Source of the DNA: Neolentinus lepideus HHB14362 ss-1
Lineage: Eukaryota > Basidiomycota > Agaricomycetes > Gloeophyllales > Gloeophyllaceae
Direction: 5' to 3'
NCBI GenBank assembly: GCA_001632425.1
Contig: KV425565.1
Coordinates: forward strand, 1-64,000
Length of the DNA: 64,000 nucleotides
Below, piece after piece: positions 2,106-36,934 of the stretch. Made by a program: the position numbers and the translations under genes. The stretch's first letter is position 1. Every line of letters starts with the position of its first letter. The notes beneath the pieces were generated by a model, which did not search any database, was not told the origin of the DNA, and worked only from the letters and a program-made list of their open reading frames with translations.

Positions 2106-3504
2106 GGTGGGATGGTGTCGACGTGGCGACGGCAGCCCGTGTGCGTCGAATGACACCACGAGTACGCGTGCTAGATCTTGCGTTGACTCGTAAAGGTCGT
2201 GACCGTGAAGTCCGCCCGCGTCGAACTCACCAACAGTGGAGACCACGACTTCATGGTGTCGACCGCTGGCGAGTCAGACCACCAACGTAGCGACTGTATG
2301 TCGAGCTAGAGATGGCGAGCTCTGGGTGCCGCTGCGATTAAGACCTCGGGGTTCAGTGGATCACGGCGTGATGTCACGACTGCAAATGGGCGGAATAGCG
2401 TCGTCTTGTTCGTACGCGACGTCGGAGAGCGTGGCGGGGGCGAGGAAGGGAGCGGTGAGGATATGAGGTCGGGTGACGTCTTGCGAGTAGGAGGGGAGTG
2501 TAGATAATACGATGTTACATACCTTTGAATGAGCAATATATGCATTCTCATCACCGTATGCACAGGGTAGACCTTCCAATCCTCGTACACTATCTGGTAT
2601 TTCCGCCTCTTTCCGCGGGATGCCATGAATGTGCGAGTCGAGTCAACGGTGATGCGAGGGCGGATAGTGTTCGAGCAGATGGTGCAATACATGGAATGCA
2701 TAATAGAGAATTGGAGAGTGCGATGCTTTATATTCTCTCGAGCAAGCGCGATCACCAACGCGGTGACTGTATGACATATGTTTCCGGTGCATCTGACGTA
2801 GATCCTGACCACATTGAGTATTGCAAGGGATCGGCATGGTTCGGGTCCGATTGTCCACACGGAATATGGTTTGACGGAGCATGTATTGTGGGCGGTGCGT
2901 TGGGGCAATCATAGCAAAGCAACAGGTGTCGGTCGCAGTCGTCGTTAGGTTTCAGATTCTTTCCTCCACGTCAAAGTGGTGGCAGTTGAGCGCTGTCTGT
3001 GGACAGGTCAGAGGCAGTGCTATCGCCGCCTGAAGGTATCGTTCGAAATAAAGCAGAAACCTTCAGCGTCTTTCACTAGTCTTGTTACCTTTAGGAAAGC
3101 TAAGGAAGGGTGCATAGCAGATATGTAATGGAAAGAGAATGTTTCGACGCTCGCATATGTTGTCCCTGCAAACCGTCGCATGCTCTTTCGCCTCTACGGT
3201 GTATTATCCTATCAGAGACACATCCTCACTGTATGCGCTGTAATACTCTCTGTTACCATGAGTCCTCTGTCCATCCACCGTAACCAATCGGTCATTTATT
3301 GTAGCACATCTTTCGGTAGCAGATCTTTTATTTCGGATCTTTTATTGACGTTGACAGCGGAAGGTCTTGTAGCTTTAAAGTTCGACTAGTTCAGTCCATC
3401 CAGTACTCGACTCCCGCCACCGTAACACCCTGTCGTCCGAATCCCGTCCGATCACAACTCGCGTTCACCAAACACAGCAAGTACCCACATCTGCAAACGC
3501 AAGA

Positions 3505-5154
<1,650 letters not shown>

Positions 5155-27007: not shown

Positions 27008-29247
27008 ATGGCCGACTCGTCTGATCCGCCCCCGCGCTCGCGACCCGTCCCTGTCCCCGCCCGACAACCACAGACCCCATCTGCATCGCGTCCATCCGTC
27101 TCCGCGCTGCTGTCCAATCGTACGCCCGGAGCGACGCCAATTCCTCCGTCTTTGCAAGCCAAAATGGCTGCGGTGAGTGTCTGCTCAATCTGATCTATGC
27201 TCCCTTTAGTGGGCGGTGCTAGCTGTCATTGTGCATCCAAGTCAAGCGAGCCGGATGTCTTATTCATGCGCTGGGATAAGCGGAGAGGTTTTGCACGAGT
27301 GGTTGGACTGGTAGCTTCCGTCCGAGCGTCGCGATATGCATGAGTAACGCTGGTCGACGCCAGCGGTTGGTCCGATTCTCAGAGACGGCGGGATGTGGCG
27401 GGAATTTGCGCTATATGAAAGTCGTATGCTTCCTTGTGCAGCCGCAGTGTATGGGCTCATCTTTCGTGCGGTCACGGTTGGACCTATCACGGAATAGCAT
27501 GATCGCCATTCCGCCACTGAACTTTCGTACTTATTCGGACCGTATTCATCTGCTAGGGTCTGGACGCCTTTGTTTCATTTCTCAATCCCGAGGCTCATTT
27601 TCGGATACTGACTAATCGTTCCTTTATGCACCCCAATTTCAGATGGCTAATCGTGCATCTAAATCGCAACATTCGGTTGATTCGACAGCAGCGGCCCTCA
27701 AGCGCGCCTCCCTTGCAGATAACATTCGACCAGTTGCTTCCGCGCCTTCGCCAACGCGTCCAGGGGGCGTGGCTGGGCGACGGCAGAAACCGAACCTGAA
27801 CATCAGCCAACTTATCGGCGAGTCCGGTGGTTTAACAGGTGGCGCAGCTGGTGCTGGGTTAGGTGCTGGGAGTATCCTAAATCAAGATCAGGATAGGGTG
27901 AGCCCTGCTGCAAAAAGAAATGCTGGGACGCCGTTTGCGAACTTCCAGAAGATCGTGTGAGCAAAAACGAGTCTCTTCTCTTCTCCGCAGTAGGCTGAAT
28001 CGACTTCCGCTCTGTAGCGACCCCTCTGGCCGGTTAAAGTTCAGTGGGAAGGCCGTGCTGCATGCGGCTGGTGTTGACTTCTCCAATGGCCAGAGTTTTG
28101 CCATTACGATGGACCAATTACAGCTTTATGAGGATCTGGGGAAAGGGAATTACGGGACGGTGAAGAAGGTGTTGCATAAGCCGACAAATGTGGCGATGGC
28201 AATGAAGGTAATACCTTCCTCTCTCGAGTCATACAATCTGTTCTGATAGGGTTATCCCAGGAAATTCGCCTGGAACTTGATCAAGCGAAACTTAATGCTA
28301 TTATTATGGAGCTCGACATCTTACACAGGGCAGTGGCGCCGGAAATCGTCGAGTTCTATGGCGCCTTCTTCATTGAATCTTGCGTTTACTACTGTATGGA
28401 GTACATGGACGCAGGGTCTATGGACAAACTCCAAGCATACGGACGTGATTCACCATGTACAACACCGCAGGCACCTCCAGAGGATCCCATGGATACGACA
28501 CAAATGCCAGATCCTACTAGCATCCAGCTGACCCTGCCAAACCCGATATTCAGCGGGAAGCGGACGGGCGGGGTGCCAGAGCAGGTACTGGCCAGGGTGG
28601 TAGGCAGTATGGTGCGAGGGCTGAAGTTCTTGAAGGATGAGCTGCAGATAATGCACCGTGATGTTAAGCCGACGAACGTGCTTGTAAATCGGAGGGGGGA
28701 GATTAAGTTATGTGATTTTGGTGTCAGCGGCCAGTTGGAGAAGAGTTTGGCGAAGACGAATATTGGTTGTCAGAGTTATATGGCGGTGAGTGCTACATTC
28801 ATATCAAGCTACAATGTTATCTGATGGCTTATGCAGCCCGAGAGAATCCGTTCAGAATCGCTCAACACTTCTCCTACCTACACCGTTTCCTCCGACGTCT
28901 GGTCACTAGGACTGTCCACGATCGAGATGGCTCTGGGCCACTATCCATATCCGCCCGAAACGTATTCCAACGTCTTCGCGCAATTGACTGCGATTGTGCA
29001 TGGCGACCCTCCACAATTACCCGCCGAGTTCAGTGAGACTGCTCGAGATTGGGTGGCGCGGTGCATGATGAAGCGGCCAGAAGATCGCGCGACGTACAAG
29101 GAGCTGCTGGAGCACCCGTTCCTAGTCGAGGATTCACGACGGCAGGTGGATATGCCTGAATGGGTGGCAAGAGCACTGGAGGCTAAGGAGCGAGCCTCGA
29201 GAGAGAAGGAACGGATGGAGGTGTTGGGGGAGAAGGCGCTGTCATGA
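27008..29247 (+). CDS. PBS2: MAP kinase kinase of the HOG stress pathway (Pbs2/Wis1 type)
   Basis: Phosphorylates the Hog1-type p38 MAP kinase under osmotic and other stress. Five exons (27008-27172, 27643-27956, 28018-28207, 28261-28785, 28837-29247) give 534 residues. The N-terminal 190 residues are Pro/Ser-rich and probably carry docking sites. The kinase domain has the glycine loop GKGNYGTVKKVLHKPT, the lysine in VAMAMKEI, the catalytic MHRDVKPTNVLVN, DFGVSGQLEKSLAKTNIG with the Ser and Thr activation sites, and CQSYMAPERI, which is characteristic of Pbs2 and distinguishes it from Ste7 and Mkk1. A proline-rich insert lies between subdomains V and VI. Intron 1 is 470 nt, exceptional here. 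A short charged tail follows the domain. Confidence 0.95.
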
Positions 29248-30843
29248 TTTCTGACAGGTTCCCCCCCTCCTGTGAGATAGTGCCGCGGCGAATGAGGGCC
29301 CCTATTTTCGGTTTTGGTGGCCCACTGACTGTCTCGGCTAGAAGATTAACTGGTATTTTCGGTCTCAAGCAAGGATTGAATTAAGGCTCGCGCGGCGTGT
29401 CCTCTGTCGTTCGCTTCTGGTGTCCTCGGTTCGTGCCCTGCTATCTATGTTGTTCTGCGTCCCTTCTGGTCGGGGGTCCGCATGTTCGGAGCTTCTCTGG
29501 CTTTCTGTTCTGGTGATCTTAAACCAGGATCGACGGCCTGTGTTGTGGGTGGCTGGGGAAAGGGAAGCACGCCGAGGTGTTGGTTCGGGGCAATTGCAAA
29601 AGGCGGCCTTGCGTTACCTCGAGAGGAAGCATGGAGGACCAAAGCAATCATCATCATCCAAACAATGGACACTGTTCATCATTGTATCGTATTCATCATC
29701 ACCTTAGTCCTGTCTCCTGCGTCGTTTAACTCCCCCTTGCCCTTGCTACACCTATCATCTGTTGCATGCTGATCACGACTGGGTACTCTTTTCGTTCGTC
29801 GATTTTTGGCTGGCTGGTGCTACGCTGTTGTTTGATGGTTAGTTTGGGTAGAGCGCTAAAGATCCAGATGAGGTGCTGTGCTCCTTCCTATTTATTAGTA
29901 TGCCTACGTTACAATCGTAGGATGCATATACACGACTGCATCGTACTTAATGTGTAATGTATGGCCATGGTCTGCATGGTCTGGATAGATTGTGTATATG
30001 AACGTTAACGATGTTTGTACGCGCAATGAATTTGCCCACGTTCTTGCTCCTTACGTGAAATAGATGGCATCAGCGCTCAGGTGATTCTCCAGATTCTTGA
30101 CGTCTAATTGTGGAATGTCCTTTGGGCTCAAGTTTGTAAATTGTGGCGGCCAGTTGCGATCTTTAACTCTAGACCTCACCATTCGTTGGTAGCCGGGGAA
30201 CAGTCTCGTTCAGACGGGATGGGATCTCGACTAGAAGCAACCGCAGAATGGCAGTTCTTTGTGACTTGGCTATGTCGCTCTGGACCTTCCGCGGCACTTG
30301 TGCATCAGTAAAGCGAGTCTTGATTGACCTCCTGGATATCCAATATATAGCGACGGAGTATTTTCCGAGATGCAGTTCGCTCAAGGCTGCTTCTCAAGTC
30401 TCGAGGTGATGCAGACAAACACCATCCAAACCTCAGAGCGCCGATATTCGGTCTCTGGAAATTGACGGTATACACGGCATCTTCACATCCGTCAAACTGC
30501 TGCCAGTGTTGCCGCGGCATTGTATCCTCTGCTTCTTGTCTGGAAAGTCTGCACACCTTTGTGGCTTATAGTTACGCCATAACAGAATGCTATGGTCATA
30601 GAATGACAGATTTCCATCTCGAATGCACTACTAAACCCGACATATGCCGTGCAGCTGTCATTGAAAGTCTCATTCTCCAGACTTTCTAGGCGAACTCTGA
30701 CAGGATGGAGCCGTTACTACCGCTTGTAACTCAGTCTAAACCGGATTATCTTACCCAAATTACAAAAAACAGGACTCCTGGGAGCCTATCAAGAGCACAG
30801 GGAAGTTTTTAAAGCCTGTATTTTATCTTCGCGGATCGAGTTA
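29248..30843. other. Intergenic, no recognised gene
   Basis: Downstream of PBS2, up to the left end of the transposable element. Only short frames without known motifs are seen. The first few hundred bases are probably PBS2 3' untranslated sequence. Confidence 0.4.
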
Positions 30844-30863
30844 CACTGTGGGAAGTAAAGCCA
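30844..30863 (+). repeat. Left terminal inverted repeat
   Basis: CACTGTGGGAAGTAAAGCCA, identical to the reverse complement of 33538-33557. TTA precedes it. Confidence 0.92.
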
Positions 30864-30868
30864 TTTTG

Positions 30869-31015
30869 TATAATTGGCTTTGCCAGTGATTTTACAAAAT
30901 CATTGGCAAAGCCAATGATTTCGTGGCCATGGACAATAATTGGCTTTGCCGGTATTGGTTTTTCCAATTATTTTTCGTGACTAGGGTGGTACCATTGACT
31001 TTGCCAATTATTTAC
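30869..31015. repeat. Left subterminal motif cluster
   Basis: Four copies or half-copies of ATTGGCTTTGCCAAT, itself an interrupted palindrome (ATTGGC, three bases, GCCAAT). They lie near 30872, 30901 (inverted), 30938 and 30994, with a degenerate copy between the last two. Clusters like this bind transposase in CACTA elements. Confidence 0.8.
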
Positions 31016-31059
31016 AGTGGTGTACTGTTGATGCACTGCCTGACCTCATAGAGCAGTCT

Positions 31060-32100
31060 CCAGGTGTGATTCACCTTCCAGCGCCGCGAATCTCGGGTTT
31101 CTGTGTGTACTTAGACAGTATACCTTTGAATATAGCATGATTGTCAACCGGCGGTTGCCACGCTCGAACCGTCGGTAACCATTCACCACGACGACGACTT
31201 ATCGACCATGGGGTTCGACGTAGACTCGTCACCAATCCAGCACGCAATGCACACGTCTTCCCGAAGTGATAGTGAAGTATAGTATTATTTGGTGTATACC
31301 AGATTGTACTAAATAAATCCCATGACTGTGATTTTATTCTGATTTTTCTGGAATTTCTGTGATTTTCCTGGAATTTCTAATGATTTGTGATGAATTTATG
31401 GAGCTTTTGCGTTGATGCGCCACCGCCAAGTACAACCAAATATTTCCCATCACGTGATCATGACGCCGCGGTGTGCAAAAGTCCTGCTTACTATGGGACG
31501 CGACTCTGTCCCGCTCTCCAGTTCTCTCCTCCTGCCGCTACATGTTGTCGTGTTGGTCCTTCGCACGCCATTGAGATACTTAGTGTCACAACTGCACCCG
31601 TGTCTATGACCCTTTGGCCCTGGAAGTGCCGAAGATGCCATCTTTCCAAGTGCAAATGGATGTCGTTGGACAGTGCTGGAACGTGAGTGCTGACGACTTT
31701 TCGCAATGCTGCCAACTTACTCGGACTTGGATAGATGTATATACAGCAATACCTGCAAAGGCCCATTGGATGCTCGGGACTGAGATCCGGTTGCGATCCA
31801 ATCAAAGACCTCTCCAGCAGATGACGAAGACTCTTTTGGCGCACATGCAGGCGGTGTTAGACTTAGTTGTTCATTCTCCCATGGACCAGGCGGGTGACTT
31901 GGAGGTATGTGCTAATGGCGTCGAGGTGTGTGACTGAGATGTGCATATAGAGACTGACCACGCATATAGAGACTGACTGCGCATATAGCGACTTTAGACG
32001 TCATCCTCTCCCTACGCAGCCGAAGCAGTATCTCAAGCACTCAGCAGGTGAAGTTTTGTGAGGCCGCGACTCGGATGTTCACTACCCGTCTCGACATCCC
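31060..32100. other. Element interior of unknown origin
   Basis: Sequence inside the transposable element. A plus-strand frame at 31614-31937 (MALEVPKMPSFQVQMDV...) overlaps an opposite-strand frame, and neither shows a known motif. It may be a second captured fragment or unique element sequence. Confidence 0.35.
31943..31992. repeat. 19-bp tandem repeat inside the element
   Basis: GCATATAGAGACTGACNNC recurs at 31943, 31962 and 31981. The last copy is partial. Confidence 0.8.
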
Positions 32101-32155
32101 CGGTGCGTGTTTCACAACTGGTGCGTTCTCCCTCCTCCTCCCCCACGTTCCCCCT

Positions 32156-32219
32156 CTCATCTCATCTCATATCATATCATCTCCCAACTCAACTCAACTC
32201 AATTCAACTCAGCTCAGCT
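32156..32219. repeat. Pentanucleotide-type simple repeat
   Basis: A run of CTCAT/ATCAT words followed by AACTC words, inside the element. Low complexity, no coding role inferred. Confidence 0.8.
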
Positions 32220-32533
32220 ACTCCCTACTCAGAATTCGACAACACAATCCTACACATCCGCGCACACTAACATCACCGCCAACGCCCTCGCCTCGTGCAT
32301 CCAGCTCGTCCACGTGGGAGTGGGGGGGCCGGTCCTCCCTTTCGCGCTGTTCCCGGATGTCGGGTGCGTGTCTTGTATTTTTCTGTGTCCTTTGTGTGTC
32401 AAGAACAACGTAGGCAGAGCACGGGCGCACCGTGAATGCTACGAGGACTTGTCCGATGACCACCTGTGAGTACTTACCCCTCCCTCGGCTCACATCAATC
32501 TGACCGCCGTCTACCTCCCGGGCCCACCCACGC

Positions 32534-33150
32534 CGCCTCTATGTCTCCGCCCACGCCCTTACACACTCTCGCGACACGACCGTGCTCCACCAACCCAGCC
32601 ACTACGAGCTCACCATGCGCCAGGAGCCCAAGCAGGCGCGCATGTGCGGCATCGGGGGTATGTGTCCTCCTTTTCCCTTGCTCTCACGCACAGATGAACC
32701 AACATCGTACAGCGGAACGCCGCCCCATCGACCCCCCGCCCATCATCCAGCTCCGCGTGCATGACCCCGCAGCGCTGCGCGAGCCCCACTCACCTGCCTC
32801 CAGCGGCAGCTCTGCGAGCGACTTGGGGTATGTCAGTCATACTGCCGGTGCGTTTTTCTTTCCTTTTTCTTTCCCCCTTCCTTTGTCCTTCTTCTTCGTC
32901 CCACACTAACACCAACACTGGCAGACACGGCAACCCACCCCACCCCCCTCGTACGCCACCTCCTTCCTGCAGAACCCGTACTACTTCATGTTCACGTCCC
33001 TCGCGAAGCCTGACGAAGGTGTGTTTCTTATTGTTTTTGTTGTTGAGCATTTTTAGTCTGACCCTGAGCTTTTTTGCGTTTGTGTTTGCGTCTGTGATTG
33101 ACTTCGTGTTCACGCGGGCAGATACGGAGTCGAGGGACTCGTCGTGTTGA
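32534..33150 (+). pseudogene. Captured, truncated velvet-domain gene fragment
   Basis: Three exon-like blocks match the start of a velvet domain, the fungal DNA-binding fold of VosA/VelB/VeA regulators of development and secondary metabolism. Block 1 (32534-32657) reads HYELTMRQEPKQARMCGIG. Block 2 (from 32713) reads ERRPIDPPPIIQLRVHDP. Block 3 (about 32935-33018) reads SFLQNPYYFMFTSLAKPDE. Intron-like GT-AG sequence separates them. Blocks 2 and 3 do not join in frame with the only canonical sites, and after KPDE the domain stops: the next block ends in SRDSSC and a stop instead of the expected second half. It is a broken genomic copy, probably from a gene elsewhere in this genome. If transcribed it would give an incomplete domain lacking most of the beta-sandwich. 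Confidence 0.78.
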
Positions 33151-33391
33151 CGAGTAGAAGAGGGTAATGTACCAGGGGTGGGTGTTTGCAGTACATAGTA
33201 TCAATACATGGGCTGTATCTCCCTATAATAATATATTAACGTGATTGATGAAACCACGGCTAGCTACGGGAATTCTCAGTTTAAACCAATGTACATAGCA
33301 ATGGATAACCATGGAAATGGCACTTTGAATGCAAGGCACAGCTATGGAGAATCAATGTCATAGTCACGAGAAACAAGTGGTGAGGTGACCG

Positions 33392-33525
33392 AAAATAATT
33401 GGCAAAGCCAATGATTCCTAATAGGGAAAATGTCACCCCTGTAATTGGCTTTGCCAATTATGTAGATAATTGGCAAAGCCACTTTACATGACTGGCTCTG
33501 CCTATGTATTCGTACTGGTTTAGCC
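33392..33525. repeat. Right subterminal motif cluster
   Basis: Copies of ATTGGCAAAGCCAAT or its complement lie near 33398, 33451, 33474 and, degenerate, 33490-33525. They mirror the left cluster. Confidence 0.8.
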
Positions 33526-33537
33526 AATCATTCAAAG

Positions 33538-33557
33538 TGGCTTTACTTCCCACAGTG
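33538..33557 (-). repeat. Right terminal inverted repeat
   Basis: TGGCTTTACTTCCCACAGTG, a perfect inverse of the left end, followed by TTA. Confidence 0.92.
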
Positions 33558-33560
33558 TTA

Positions 33561-34450
33561 GTCAAAGATTAATAATGTGAGTTCATCCATTTTCCCGAGC
33601 CAGGAACGCTGTCGGGTCTCCATAGTATCATTTATGGCACGGAATGAGACGTGAATTAAAGCCACCCTTGTCTTACCTTTGGTCGCCATATGGCGGCCTT
33701 GCTCCACGGATAACGTCATGCACTTACTGTGCTACACACGATGCGGATGGTTGAAATAAACTGTATGGCGGACGATAGATGGTCGGATGAACGATCAAAT
33801 AACGGCGTTGATATCAACGCACCAGTCACCTACTCAAGAAGAGCGGCGCAGTTTGCTACTATTGACAATGGGCAACGTTAACTAGGAAAGCTTCAAGTAT
33901 GGGAAGCGGATCGTCGTCATTCGAGCTCTGGGAGGATATGGTATATATTTCTCGCCCACGAGAAGCATGCTAGTACTGTGGCTTACCATCATGTTTAACT
34001 GACTCCGTGGCCGATCTCAGGCTGACTAAGGCCTAATTTAATGTGGCATTACAGCCTGCTTCCGCCGGGTTGAAGTCCTGTGGCAACATAACAGATCGTA
34101 GTAATGTTTCAGAGAGTAATTCTATAATGCACAGAGTTACATACAAGGACATAACTCTGCGGAGAGGTCGAGGAGGGCATCATAGATTTCCTGAAGAAGA
34201 ATTCTGTTCGGTGGCCTGGAGGGCCAATCGTACCGAATAGACAAGATTTATGGTGGTTTGCGAAAGGCGCAATCACTAAATGGTGAATGTGATGCTATCT
34301 TAGTAGATATATTGTAGTGCTGCTTAGGAGTACTGACTACTTCATGATGTTGGATTCTAGTGCAACTTGAATCCTTCCCTGACCAATGGTAAAAGCCGAA
34401 ACCACTCTGCTTACCTAATATGTATACCGGAGCCTGCTGTGGCGTCGCGT
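33561..34450. other. Intergenic between the element and TFB1
   Basis: Upstream region of TFB1. Short frames only, no known motif and no repeat seen. Confidence 0.4.
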
Positions 34451-36934
34451 ATGCCTCCCTCAACCGTCTGTGCTGCTAAAGCATCGTACAAGAAGACTCC
34501 TGGTCTGCTTGAGCTCTCCGAAACATATTTGCAGTGGACTCAGCATGACAAGAAGGCACCTAGCGTAAGGATACCCCAGATTGAGCTCGCTTGTAAGCCT
34601 GCCTGCAAAGTTTGAGATGACATGCAATTTGCTGAACCCGCTTCCCGTACCGTTTGTCTACGCGTCCGCAATCGGGAATCATAGCATTATTCTGTAGTAA
34701 GGAAGGTTCACCCCAAGTCAGATTGAAAGTTGGCCTCTTCAAGGACAGTGGCGGCCACAACTTCACCTTCACGGCCGCTCAACCGGTCGCGCTCTCGGAA
34801 CGAGAAACGTTCAAACGAGAGCTTACCAACATCATCTCGCGGAATCGTGGCTCTGCGGATGCCCCAACACCAAAACCAGGAATCGCGTCGGCCCCTCCCA
34901 CGCCCGTGAATGGTCACCCACCACCTGTACGTCCTTCTGCCAGTGCAACTCCCGCTCCTGGTCGGGTTCCACCACCTCTGTCTCGAGCCACGAGCGTGGT
35001 CAGTAATGGTACGACACCGGGGCCCTCCAATGGGCTAACAGCAGATGACATCAAGCTGAGGAAGAAGGTGCTCGTCGCAAACCCTGAGCTGGCCGCACTG
35101 CACAGGGAGCTAGTCATGTCCGGGCAAATTACAGAATCTGAGTTTTGGGATGGTCGAGAGGTAAAGTTGATTTATCGGTTTGGCGCATAGAGCTTGTCCT
35201 GACGCGTATTATTGTGCTCGAAGCATTTACTTGTTGCTCAGTCCGCGGCAGACAGTCAGAAACGCGGTCGACCTGGAACATTGGTTGATCCACGACCTCA
35301 GGCAGTCGAAGGCGGCGATGTCAAGATAGTCATTACGCCACAGTTGGTACATGATATCTTTGAGGAATTCCCAGTCGTAGCTAAGGCGTACAATGAAAAC
35401 GTACCCAAACCAGTATGACACGCCATCACGTTCATCTGCAGTTCAAAGTTAATCTTGCTTCCTTTGCCAGCTGAACGAGTCGGATTTCTGGAGAAGATAT
35501 TTCCAGTCAAAATTGTTTCATGCGCATCGAGCATCCATCCGGTCTAGCGCAACGCAGAACGTGGTCAAGGACGACCCAATATTTGATAAGTATCTAGAAA
35601 AGGAGGACAATGGTGAGTCTTTCTTTATCCTGTCGCAACTCTGATTCTTATCTGCTCACAGACCTGGAGCCACGGCGACAACGGGACGAAGACGTAGAAA
35701 TGTTCATAGATCTCGGTGCCACCCAGGAAGATCACGACGCTGTCAGGGAGCTGTCTATTACACGCGATCTTGATCTGACTATGGCCGTTATCGTAGACTG
35801 GTAATGAGAAAGATATCACGATGCAAGCAGGGAAGCAAAAGGGTGTTCTCCCACTCATTCGGAAATTCAATGAACATTCGGAGCGTCTTCTGAAATCTGC
35901 AATGTGCGGCCTTATGATCGATTTGCTATGTACGCATACTCATATTTCATGTTAGAGGGGATGGTCAGGGGGCGGCAAAACGGCGAAGGATCGATGATGA
36001 TGCGTCACATGTACGTAGCTAACATCCTTATCCTGTGAGACTGTCAATCTCACTACTTGACACTAGATGCGCGATTACTACGCACAAATTGACCTAGAAG
36101 ATCTGCACGACTCACGAGATGCAGCCGGTATTATTCTAGAGATGCAAGATCGCCAACGGTATTTCGAAGGCGGTATGAAGAGCACAGCATCGGAAGATGC
36201 ATCAAAACATGTGAGTTCGCGGCCGGGCAATTCCAACCAGGGCGCAATGTGACGGCTCCCTGCGGCGTGTAGAAACTGGACATTAGAGCCGTCTTACGCG
36301 AAGCAAAAGACAATCTGCACGAATGGGCAGAGAACTTGAGTCAGGTGAGGGTCACAGGAGATAGAGGAGCTCTCCTCCACTGACAGCCTCACTATAGCTT
36401 CAATTGGACAAGAAAGCGGGCGATGCCTCTGTAGTTGCGATGACGCACAGCGTGCAGGCTCGTCTCACGACCAAAACACGGAAAAGTGGGTACCCCTTAG
36501 CGTCCATTGCTCGCGGATTAAGTCATACTCTCCCTAGACGACATCCCAGAAGGACTCTTGCGTCAAATGACAACATGCCAAACAGCTGCCAACGAGTTCT
36601 TGCGGCAATTCTGGTCAGCAATCTATCCGCCACTGAGCGACCTGCAATCGGCGAATCCGCCGACGTCAGCGCAGAAGGCTGCAAAAGCCGCGAAGATGGC
36701 TGGGTACCTTGCGAAAACTCATGAGAAGGTCGATGCACTAGTGCGCGCTGCGCATGCTGAGGGCGTCGACCCTAGTCGTGTCCAAGCGGTATGTTATCTC
36801 CGTCGTGTTCAGTGTAGTATACTTACTCCAGTGGTCAGGCCATGAAACCTCTCATGGATGCTGTCGAGAAGGCTCTCGCGCTTCACCGCACCAGAAAACC
36901 AGTCAGTGTCAAGACTGCTCAAGGACTTTGCTAG
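34451..36934 (+). CDS. TFB1: TFIIH core subunit Tfb1 (p62)
   Basis: A structural subunit of TFIIH, acting in RNA polymerase II initiation and nucleotide excision repair. The first exon (34451-34592) encodes MPPSTVCAAKASYKKTPG and LELSETYLQWTQHD, the start of the p62 PH domain. It splices to ASLFCSKEGSPQVRLKVGLF at 34685. Two BSD domains follow: NPELAALHRELVMSGQITES with EFWDGREHLLV, and LVHDIFEEFPVVAKAYNENV with LNESDFWRRYFQSKLF. After intron removal the middle reads DATGNEKDITMQAGKQKGVL and PLIRKFNEHSERLLKSA, then AKRRRID and IDLEDLHD. The C-terminal helical part ends in VKTAQGLC. At least eight short introns are present. Confidence 0.93.

What the first reader, a model, noticed from the sequence alone, without database searches (positions are those of the whole stretch)
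30844..33557. Pack-type TIR transposon carrying a captured velvet-regulator fragment
Sequence shows perfect 20-bp inverted ends, a TTA duplication, subterminal motif clusters and an interior with exon-intron pieces of a velvet-domain gene but no transposase. Capture of host gene fragments by CACTA/MULE-like elements is well known in plants; a clear fungal case that took part of a developmental/secondary-metabolism regulator would be notable. That the element is mobile and that the fragment is transcribed are inferences.
Basis: partly seen in the sequence, partly recalled or inferred. Interest (0 to 1): 0.88.

Follow-up and report, generated by a model that had tools for sequence, protein, structure and literature searches.

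The report
Mushroom jumping element carrying velvet fragment
This is a real DNA transposon without its own transposase, of the CACTA type, in a mushroom genome, and it carries part of a developmental-regulator gene with its introns, much as plant Pack-CACTA elements carry pieces of host genes.

Summary
Window 30844-33557 has perfect 20-bp inverted ends, a TTA direct repeat, ten palindromic subterminal motifs and no recognisable transposase. The genome (G000, very probably Neolentinus lepideus HHB14362 ss-1) holds two siblings, on C23 and C19, with the same ends, other flanks and their own 4-bp repeats: the family has moved. All three carry the 5' part of a velvet-domain gene with introns. Probable donor: NEOLEDRAFT_1183051; 3' exons of such a gene are readable on G000:C81.

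A second family (C2, C4, C5, C7, C21, C9) has nearly the same terminal repeat. It is a mosaic of the ends and interior of a Transposase_21 (tnp2) element with pieces of an aquaporin locus and an M28 peptidase locus, both still in the genome. This points to the EnSpm/CACTA superfamily and to a fungal Pack-CACTA. The velvet piece is truncated and apparently frameshifted in all three copies, so it is probably non-coding cargo.

Not shown: an empty site, a complete autonomous copy, the transposase that moves this family, transcription, the donor's 5' DNA. Capture by fungal hAT elements is in print; my searches of an open-licence library listed no fungal Pack-CACTA.

The parts
30841..30843 (.). left copy of the TTA direct repeat
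30844..33557 (+). whole element, 2714 bp
   Evidence: siblings C23:352294-355792 and C19:154069-157229
30844..30863 (+). left terminal inverted repeat, 20 bp perfect
30870..31014 (.). left cluster of subterminal ATTGGCWWWGCCAAT-like motifs (5 with up to 3 mismatches in the left 300 bp)
31221..31265 (.). 45-bp stretch of unknown nature found at 10 other places in the genome at 89-98% identity
31678..31956 (+). stretch 92% identical to C73:149088-149365, nature unknown; possible second captured piece
   Evidence: no Pfam family in three forward frames of L011:2001-3502
32600..32657 (+). velvet exon piece 1 (HYELTMRQEPKQARMCGIG)
32658..32712 (+). intron, 55 nt, GT..AG
32713..32847 (+). velvet exon 2 (ERRPIDPPPIIQLRVHDP..YVSHT)
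32848..32924 (+). intron, 77 nt, GT..AG
32925..33017 (+). velvet exon 3 (SFLQNPYYFMFTSLAKPDE); out of frame with exon 2 when spliced
33395..33534 (.). right cluster of subterminal motifs (5 with up to 3 mismatches in the right 300 bp)
33538..33557 (-). right terminal inverted repeat, 20 bp perfect
33558..33560 (.). right copy of the TTA direct repeat

Best explanation
The element is a non-autonomous Pack-CACTA transposon of a basidiomycete. An EnSpm/CACTA (tnp2, Transposase_21) transposase made by another element recognises the CACTG[T/C]GGGAAGTAAAG ends and, by analogy with plant Spm (recalled), the subterminal motif clusters, and moves the element with 3-5 bp, mostly 4 bp, target duplications. 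At some time such ends came to enclose chromosomal DNA with the 5' part of a velvet gene, introns included, perhaps by tandem insertion and aberrant excision as proposed for plant Pack-CACTA. The chimera then spread to at least three sites. The piece is truncated and apparently frameshifted in all three copies, so it most likely has no protein function. Shown: ends, direct repeats, siblings, velvet exons and introns, tnp2 elements with nearly the same ends, a sister family with pieces of two other host loci. Inferred: which transposase acts on it, the capture route, the exact donor, the lack of function.
For: Three copies with the same ends and different flanks, each with one direct repeat. 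Perfect 20-bp ends specific to them and motifs confined to their ends. Velvet exons with introns in all three. Probable donor: P0001 as best hit of 194 proteins, 3' velvet exons on C81. Sister family with ends agreeing at 22 of 23 bases (velvet right end against the C2 end), holding parts of loci that match MIP and Peptidase_M28 in Pfam, and with ends and interior matching two Transposase_21 elements.
Against: No complete autonomous element is shown: C58 runs off its contig, and no left end of C44 was found in the 2.2 kb read upstream. The subterminal repeats of C58 and C44 differ from those of the velvet family, so its own helper may be another, unseen element. No empty site. The 4-bp repeats differ from the 3 bp given for fungal EnSpm in PMC12730594 and from the 5 nt given for rice and maize CACTA in PMC8903248. 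Divergence between the window copy and C19 is uneven. The donor's 5' DNA could not be read.
Confidence: 0.84

Rival explanations
1. The velvet piece was captured more than once: the C19 copy and the window/C23 copies took it from the same gene at different times, or the ends were later made alike by gene conversion.
For: Between the window copy and C19 the velvet stretch differs at 38 of 300 non-CpG sites, the right end at 9 of 381 (Fisher p 1.5e-7); against the left stretch 11 of 157, p 0.08. Only C19 keeps the next donor exon DTELHWLKDG.
Against: All three copies share differences from P0001 (PHSP for PRSP, DLG for DSA) and an exon 3 of 93 nt where I count 92 from the annotated donor protein. 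Sequence upstream of the velvet piece aligns in all three too.
Confidence: 0.15
2. It belongs to another TIR superfamily with a TTA repeat, such as PIF/Harbinger, and only looks like CACTA.
For: The window copy has a TTA repeat.
Against: The seven other elements have TTAG, ATAA, ATCA, GTTG, CGTAG, GATT and CTGA. The sister family's ends are those of Transposase_21 elements. Harbinger families were not searched in the genome.
Confidence: 0.05
3. The velvet piece has a function now: it is transcribed and acts on the intact velvet gene through small RNA, or as a truncated protein.
For: Splice sites are kept and the piece lies in sense orientation relative to the element's + strand. No expression data were available.
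Against: Truncated before the second half of the velvet domain, spliced frame broken in all three copies, and CpG decay between the window copy and C23 (37 of 280 CpG positions against 26 of 1841 others).
Confidence: 0.06

Closest known systems
Pack-CACTA / Pack-TYPE elements of plants (PMC8903248 and PMC13317346, passages seen)
   Same: Transposase-less element with CACTA-type ends and direct repeats that encloses host gene pieces; pieces of more than one locus in one element (sister family).
   Different: Here a fungus; mostly 4-bp repeats against 5 nt given for rice and maize CACTA; only three velvet copies; mobilisation not observed.
hAT elements with captured histone H3 in Pyrenophora and Pseudocercospora (PMC3538342 and PMC6710886, passages seen)
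   Same: TIR transposon that captured and multiplied a host gene in a fungus.
   Different: hAT with 8-bp repeats in Pseudocercospora; there the H3 copy lacked introns and was read as a transcript or retrocopy; here introns are kept and the type is CACTA.
Fungal EnSpm/CACTA and Plavaka elements (PMC12730594, PMC1636069, passages and one section seen)
   Same: Transposase_21 domain in the relatives here; 5'-CAC..GTG-3' ends.
   Different: EnSpm there has 3-bp repeats; Plavaka ends are TGT..ACA or CATCA..TGATG. The passages I saw do not deal with captured host gene pieces of this sort.
Helitrons with captured genes in Pleurotus and other fungi (PMC4289320, listing and start of abstract seen)
   Same: Gene fragments captured by DNA transposons in a basidiomycete.
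   Different: Helitrons are rolling-circle elements; the element here has inverted ends and direct repeats.

Membership tests
EnSpm/CACTA superfamily | Terminal inverted repeats beginning CAC and ending GTG (PMC12730594) | tested here: met
   CACTG..CAGTG in 8 of 8 elements with paired ends
EnSpm/CACTA superfamily | Short direct repeats: 3 bp for fungal EnSpm, 2-5 bp for the wider clade (PMC12730594), 5 nt for rice and maize CACTA (PMC8903248) | tested here: inconclusive
   3 bp in 1, 4 bp in 6, 5 bp in 1 of 8 elements: inside the clade's range, not the 3 bp of fungal EnSpm
EnSpm/CACTA superfamily | tnp2 (Transposase_21) transposase in an autonomous relative with the same ends | tested here: inconclusive
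   C58 and C44 have Transposase_21 (3e-17, 1.4e-16) and nearly the same ends, but neither is complete in the stretches read and their subterminal repeats differ
EnSpm/CACTA superfamily | Clustered subterminal motifs in both orientations (recalled for Spm) | tested here: met
   5 + 5 motifs at the two ends, 0 in the interior
Pack-TYPE (Pack-CACTA) | No transposase, host gene piece between CACTA-type ends | tested here: met
   Six frames without a transposase family; velvet exons with introns
Pack-TYPE (Pack-CACTA) | Donor gene elsewhere in the genome | tested here: inconclusive
   P0001 from a contig of the same length as C81, and 3' velvet exons on C81; the matching 5' DNA is not readable. For the sister family both donor loci were read
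Pack-TYPE (Pack-CACTA) | Observed mobilisation | not testable with these tools
   Copies at three sites only
PIF/Harbinger | TTA or TAA repeats (PMC8903248) | tested here: not met
   1 of 8 elements
Plavaka | Ends TGT..ACA or CATCA..TGATG, 2-3 bp repeats (PMC12730594, section 20) | tested here: not met

The most novel reading that the evidence does not exclude
Basidiomycete CACTA elements make Pack-CACTA chimeras repeatedly: in one 34-Mb genome two families with nearly the same ends took up pieces of at least three host genes (velvet, aquaporin, M28 peptidase), with introns for velvet and aquaporin. Gene shuffling by CACTA elements would then not be a plant speciality, and the capture route could be studied in a small fungal genome.
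Probability: 0.65. Interest if true: 0.65.

Novelty: new member of a known kind. Interest (0 to 1): 0.52.

Why it matters
Gene capture by CACTA elements is described in plants; in fungi capture by TIR elements is in print for hAT, with an intron-less histone gene in Pseudocercospora (PMC6710886, passages). Here a fungal CACTA-type system carries gene pieces with introns, two donor loci are readable in the same genome, and tnp2 elements with nearly the same ends are present. Donor, chimera and transposase can be compared in one small genome, which makes the tandem-insertion model of capture testable outside plants. Gene models laid over such elements may also be transposon cargo.

Tried and rejected
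PIF/Harbinger from the TTA repeat: rejected, because seven other elements have other repeats. An intact velvet gene at this very locus: none seen; the neighbours are a kinase and a TFIIH-type protein. The four velvet loci found by Pfam (C3, C27, C8, C10) as donors: rejected, only short weak protein matches and no DNA match. Single TIR-like hits as autonomous elements: 13 stretches were fetched and no second end was seen, but four of them (C44, C40, C29, C35) lay on the wrong side of the end, and C77 was 8836 of 9401 N; C44 and C40 were re-read in part, C29 and C35 were not. Five of the 28 TIR-like places were tied to no element; four of these five were not fetched. Origin of other open pieces of the interior (five pieces, 205 positions with spacers): 312 candidates, none at E <= 10. 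Rfam on 30500-33900 and tRNA scan of the window: nothing. Empty site by joined flanks: only the window's own flanks.

Literature: eight searches of the open-licence library listed no fungal Pack-CACTA; each showed at most 20 titles, often of hundreds, and most subscription papers are not held. PMC6379663 (Arabidopsis Pack-CACTA) is not held; the tandem-insertion model is taken from passages of PMC13317346 and PMC8903248. PMC4905642 was looked through for four terms: no CACTA, no Neolentinus.

Full report
Observation. The element runs from 30844 to 33557. Its ends are a perfect 20-bp inverted repeat, CACTGTGGGAAGTAAAGCCA, with TTA directly outside both. The 19-mer CACTGTGGGAAGTAAAGCC occurs exactly six times in the 33.8-Mb assembly, each time at an end of one of three elements; with up to three mismatches there are 28 places against 5 for the reversed control. 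Of the 28, 16 are the paired ends of eight elements (three velvet elements, C2, C4, C5, C7, C21), 7 are single ends looked at further (C9, C44, C58, C77, C1, C40, C29) and 5 were tied to nothing. All 14 genomic places with 0-1 mismatch to WATTGGCWWWGCCAATW lie inside the three velvet elements.

Siblings. The whole-element search found C23:352294-355792 and C19:154069-157229. The window copy and C23 are 96% identical over 2556 aligned bases; C19 matches in pieces of about 80-95%. Flanks differ, and each copy has its own direct repeat: TTA, TTAG, ATAA. C23 has an extra stretch of about 790 bp bounded on both sides by GTACTGTTG, a later nested insertion. Differences between the window copy and C23, counted over five blocks of the alignment, crowd at CpG: 37 of 280 CpG positions against 26 of 1841 others. 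I read this as decay of a methylated repeat (inference).

The velvet piece. Stretches for HYELTMRQEPKQARMCGIG, ERRPIDPPPIIQLRVHDP..YVSHT and SFLQNPYYFMFTSLAKPDE follow one another, with GT..AG introns of 55 and 77 nt. Pfam scores are weak on the window copy alone (20.8 bits, cut-off 25); in the genome search the element stretches reach 27.9, 23.9 and 23.8 bits. A 95-residue composite finds 194 proteins at E <= 0.001; 119 of the 120 listed bear the Velvet domain, and the best is P0001, NEOLEDRAFT_1183051 of Neolentinus lepideus HHB14362 ss-1, 76% identical to the composite. The contig length given for P0001, 128225, is that of G000:C81. From this number I take G000 to be that strain (Gloeophyllales). 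P0001 itself finds only the three elements in readable G000. A Suillus relative, P0004, finds two stretches at C81:101214-101516 (85% and 82%). The fetched DNA shows those 3' exons, with a run of N beginning about 0.6 kb upstream of the nearest exon. So the probable donor is the C81 gene, its 5' half being in or beyond the gap, or withheld; I could not read on. C19 keeps a further exon, DTELHWLKDG, that the window copy and C23 lack. In all three copies exon 3 has 93 nt and does not continue the frame of exon 2; from P0001 I count 92 nt. With the shared differences PHSP and DLG against PRSP and DSA this argues for one capture. The piece ends before the second half of the velvet domain.

Sister family and helper. 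C2, C4, C5, C7 and C21 (3.8-4.1 kb, paired ends) and C9 (one degraded end) have CACTG[CT]GGGAAGTA ends. The velvet right end and the C2 end agree at 22 of 23 bases. C7 is a mosaic: 1-358 the left end of the C58 element (87%), 521-1402 a locus on C3 (76%), 1723-2162 and 2427-2560 interior of the C44 element (72%, 81%), 2750-3562 a locus on C12 (82%), 3795-4113 the right end of the C44 element (82%). Pfam names the C3 locus MIP, aquaporin family (1e-23), and the C12 locus Peptidase_M28 (3e-20). The captured part of the C12 locus overlaps the Pfam-matched stretch by only some 70 bp and runs on downstream; that the rest is the end of the peptidase gene is read by eye. The captured part of the C3 locus runs through the space between two MIP blocks that lie in different frames, so an intron was taken along. 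C58 and C44 have Transposase_21 (3e-17, 1.4e-16); DUF4218 is over its cut-off in C58 only. They are 98% identical over 2.0 kb; C58 runs off its contig, and no left end of C44 was found in the 2.2 kb read upstream. Fourteen Transposase_21 places are listed in the genome, 13 over the cut-off, three over 60 bits.

Mechanism. Best supported: a tnp2 element acts in trans on the short ends, and capture follows when ends of neighbouring insertions come to enclose chromosomal DNA, as proposed for plant Pack-CACTA (passages of PMC13317346 and PMC8903248). Kept introns speak against a processed transcript as the source, unlike histone H3 in Pseudocercospora (PMC6710886, passages). Which transposase moves the velvet family is open: the C58 and C44 subterminal repeats (AGTGCCCAA type) differ from its own.

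What does not fit. Between the window copy and C19 the velvet stretch differs at 38 of 300 non-CpG sites and the right end at 9 of 381 (p 1.5e-7); against the left stretch, 11 of 157, p is 0.08. A second capture or gene conversion of the ends would explain it; I cannot tell which. The 4-bp repeats are neither the 3 bp given for fungal EnSpm (PMC12730594) nor the 5 nt given for rice and maize CACTA (PMC8903248), though inside the 2-5 bp of the clade.

Novelty. Transduplication in fungi was claimed first for hAT elements in Pyrenophora (PMC3538342, passages), and fungal CACTA elements were reported in 2006 (PMC1636069, passages). The searches named above listed no fungal Pack-CACTA. I file it as a new member of the Pack-CACTA kind in another kingdom. 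That the cargo is velvet matters less than that the system exists.

Noticed in passing
L009 (G000:C23:350500-357500), about 1950-2750: A nested insertion of about 790 bp in the C23 sibling, flanked by a 9-bp repeat GTACTGTTG, with imperfect inverted ends around TATACTATAGGTGTGGAC: another TIR element of unknown type.
   Followed up: partly
window 31221-31265: A 45-bp stretch found at ten other places in the genome at 89-98% identity; absent from the C19 sibling in the alignment; no Rfam or tRNA match.
   Followed up: partly
L051 (G000:C12:360600-363600), about 1600-2280: Downstream of the M28 peptidase match the locus holds several partly similar stretches, since single parts of C7, C21 and C9 match it two to four times.
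   Followed up: no
window 32233-32363 and just downstream: An intron-bounded open stretch (NITANALASCIQLVHVG..LFPDVG, then perhaps ARAHRECYEDLSDDHL) upstream of the velvet piece, perhaps part of another captured gene; no relative found.
   Followed up: partly
window 28306-29244 and 34654-35187: Nearest recognised neighbours: a protein kinase and a TFIIH p62-type protein; no listed ORF of 120 aa or more crosses either end of the element.
   Followed up: yes
G000:C59:164272-164691: The strongest Transposase_21 match of the genome (90 bits) lies away from the TIR-bearing elements described here; its ends were not examined.
   Followed up: no
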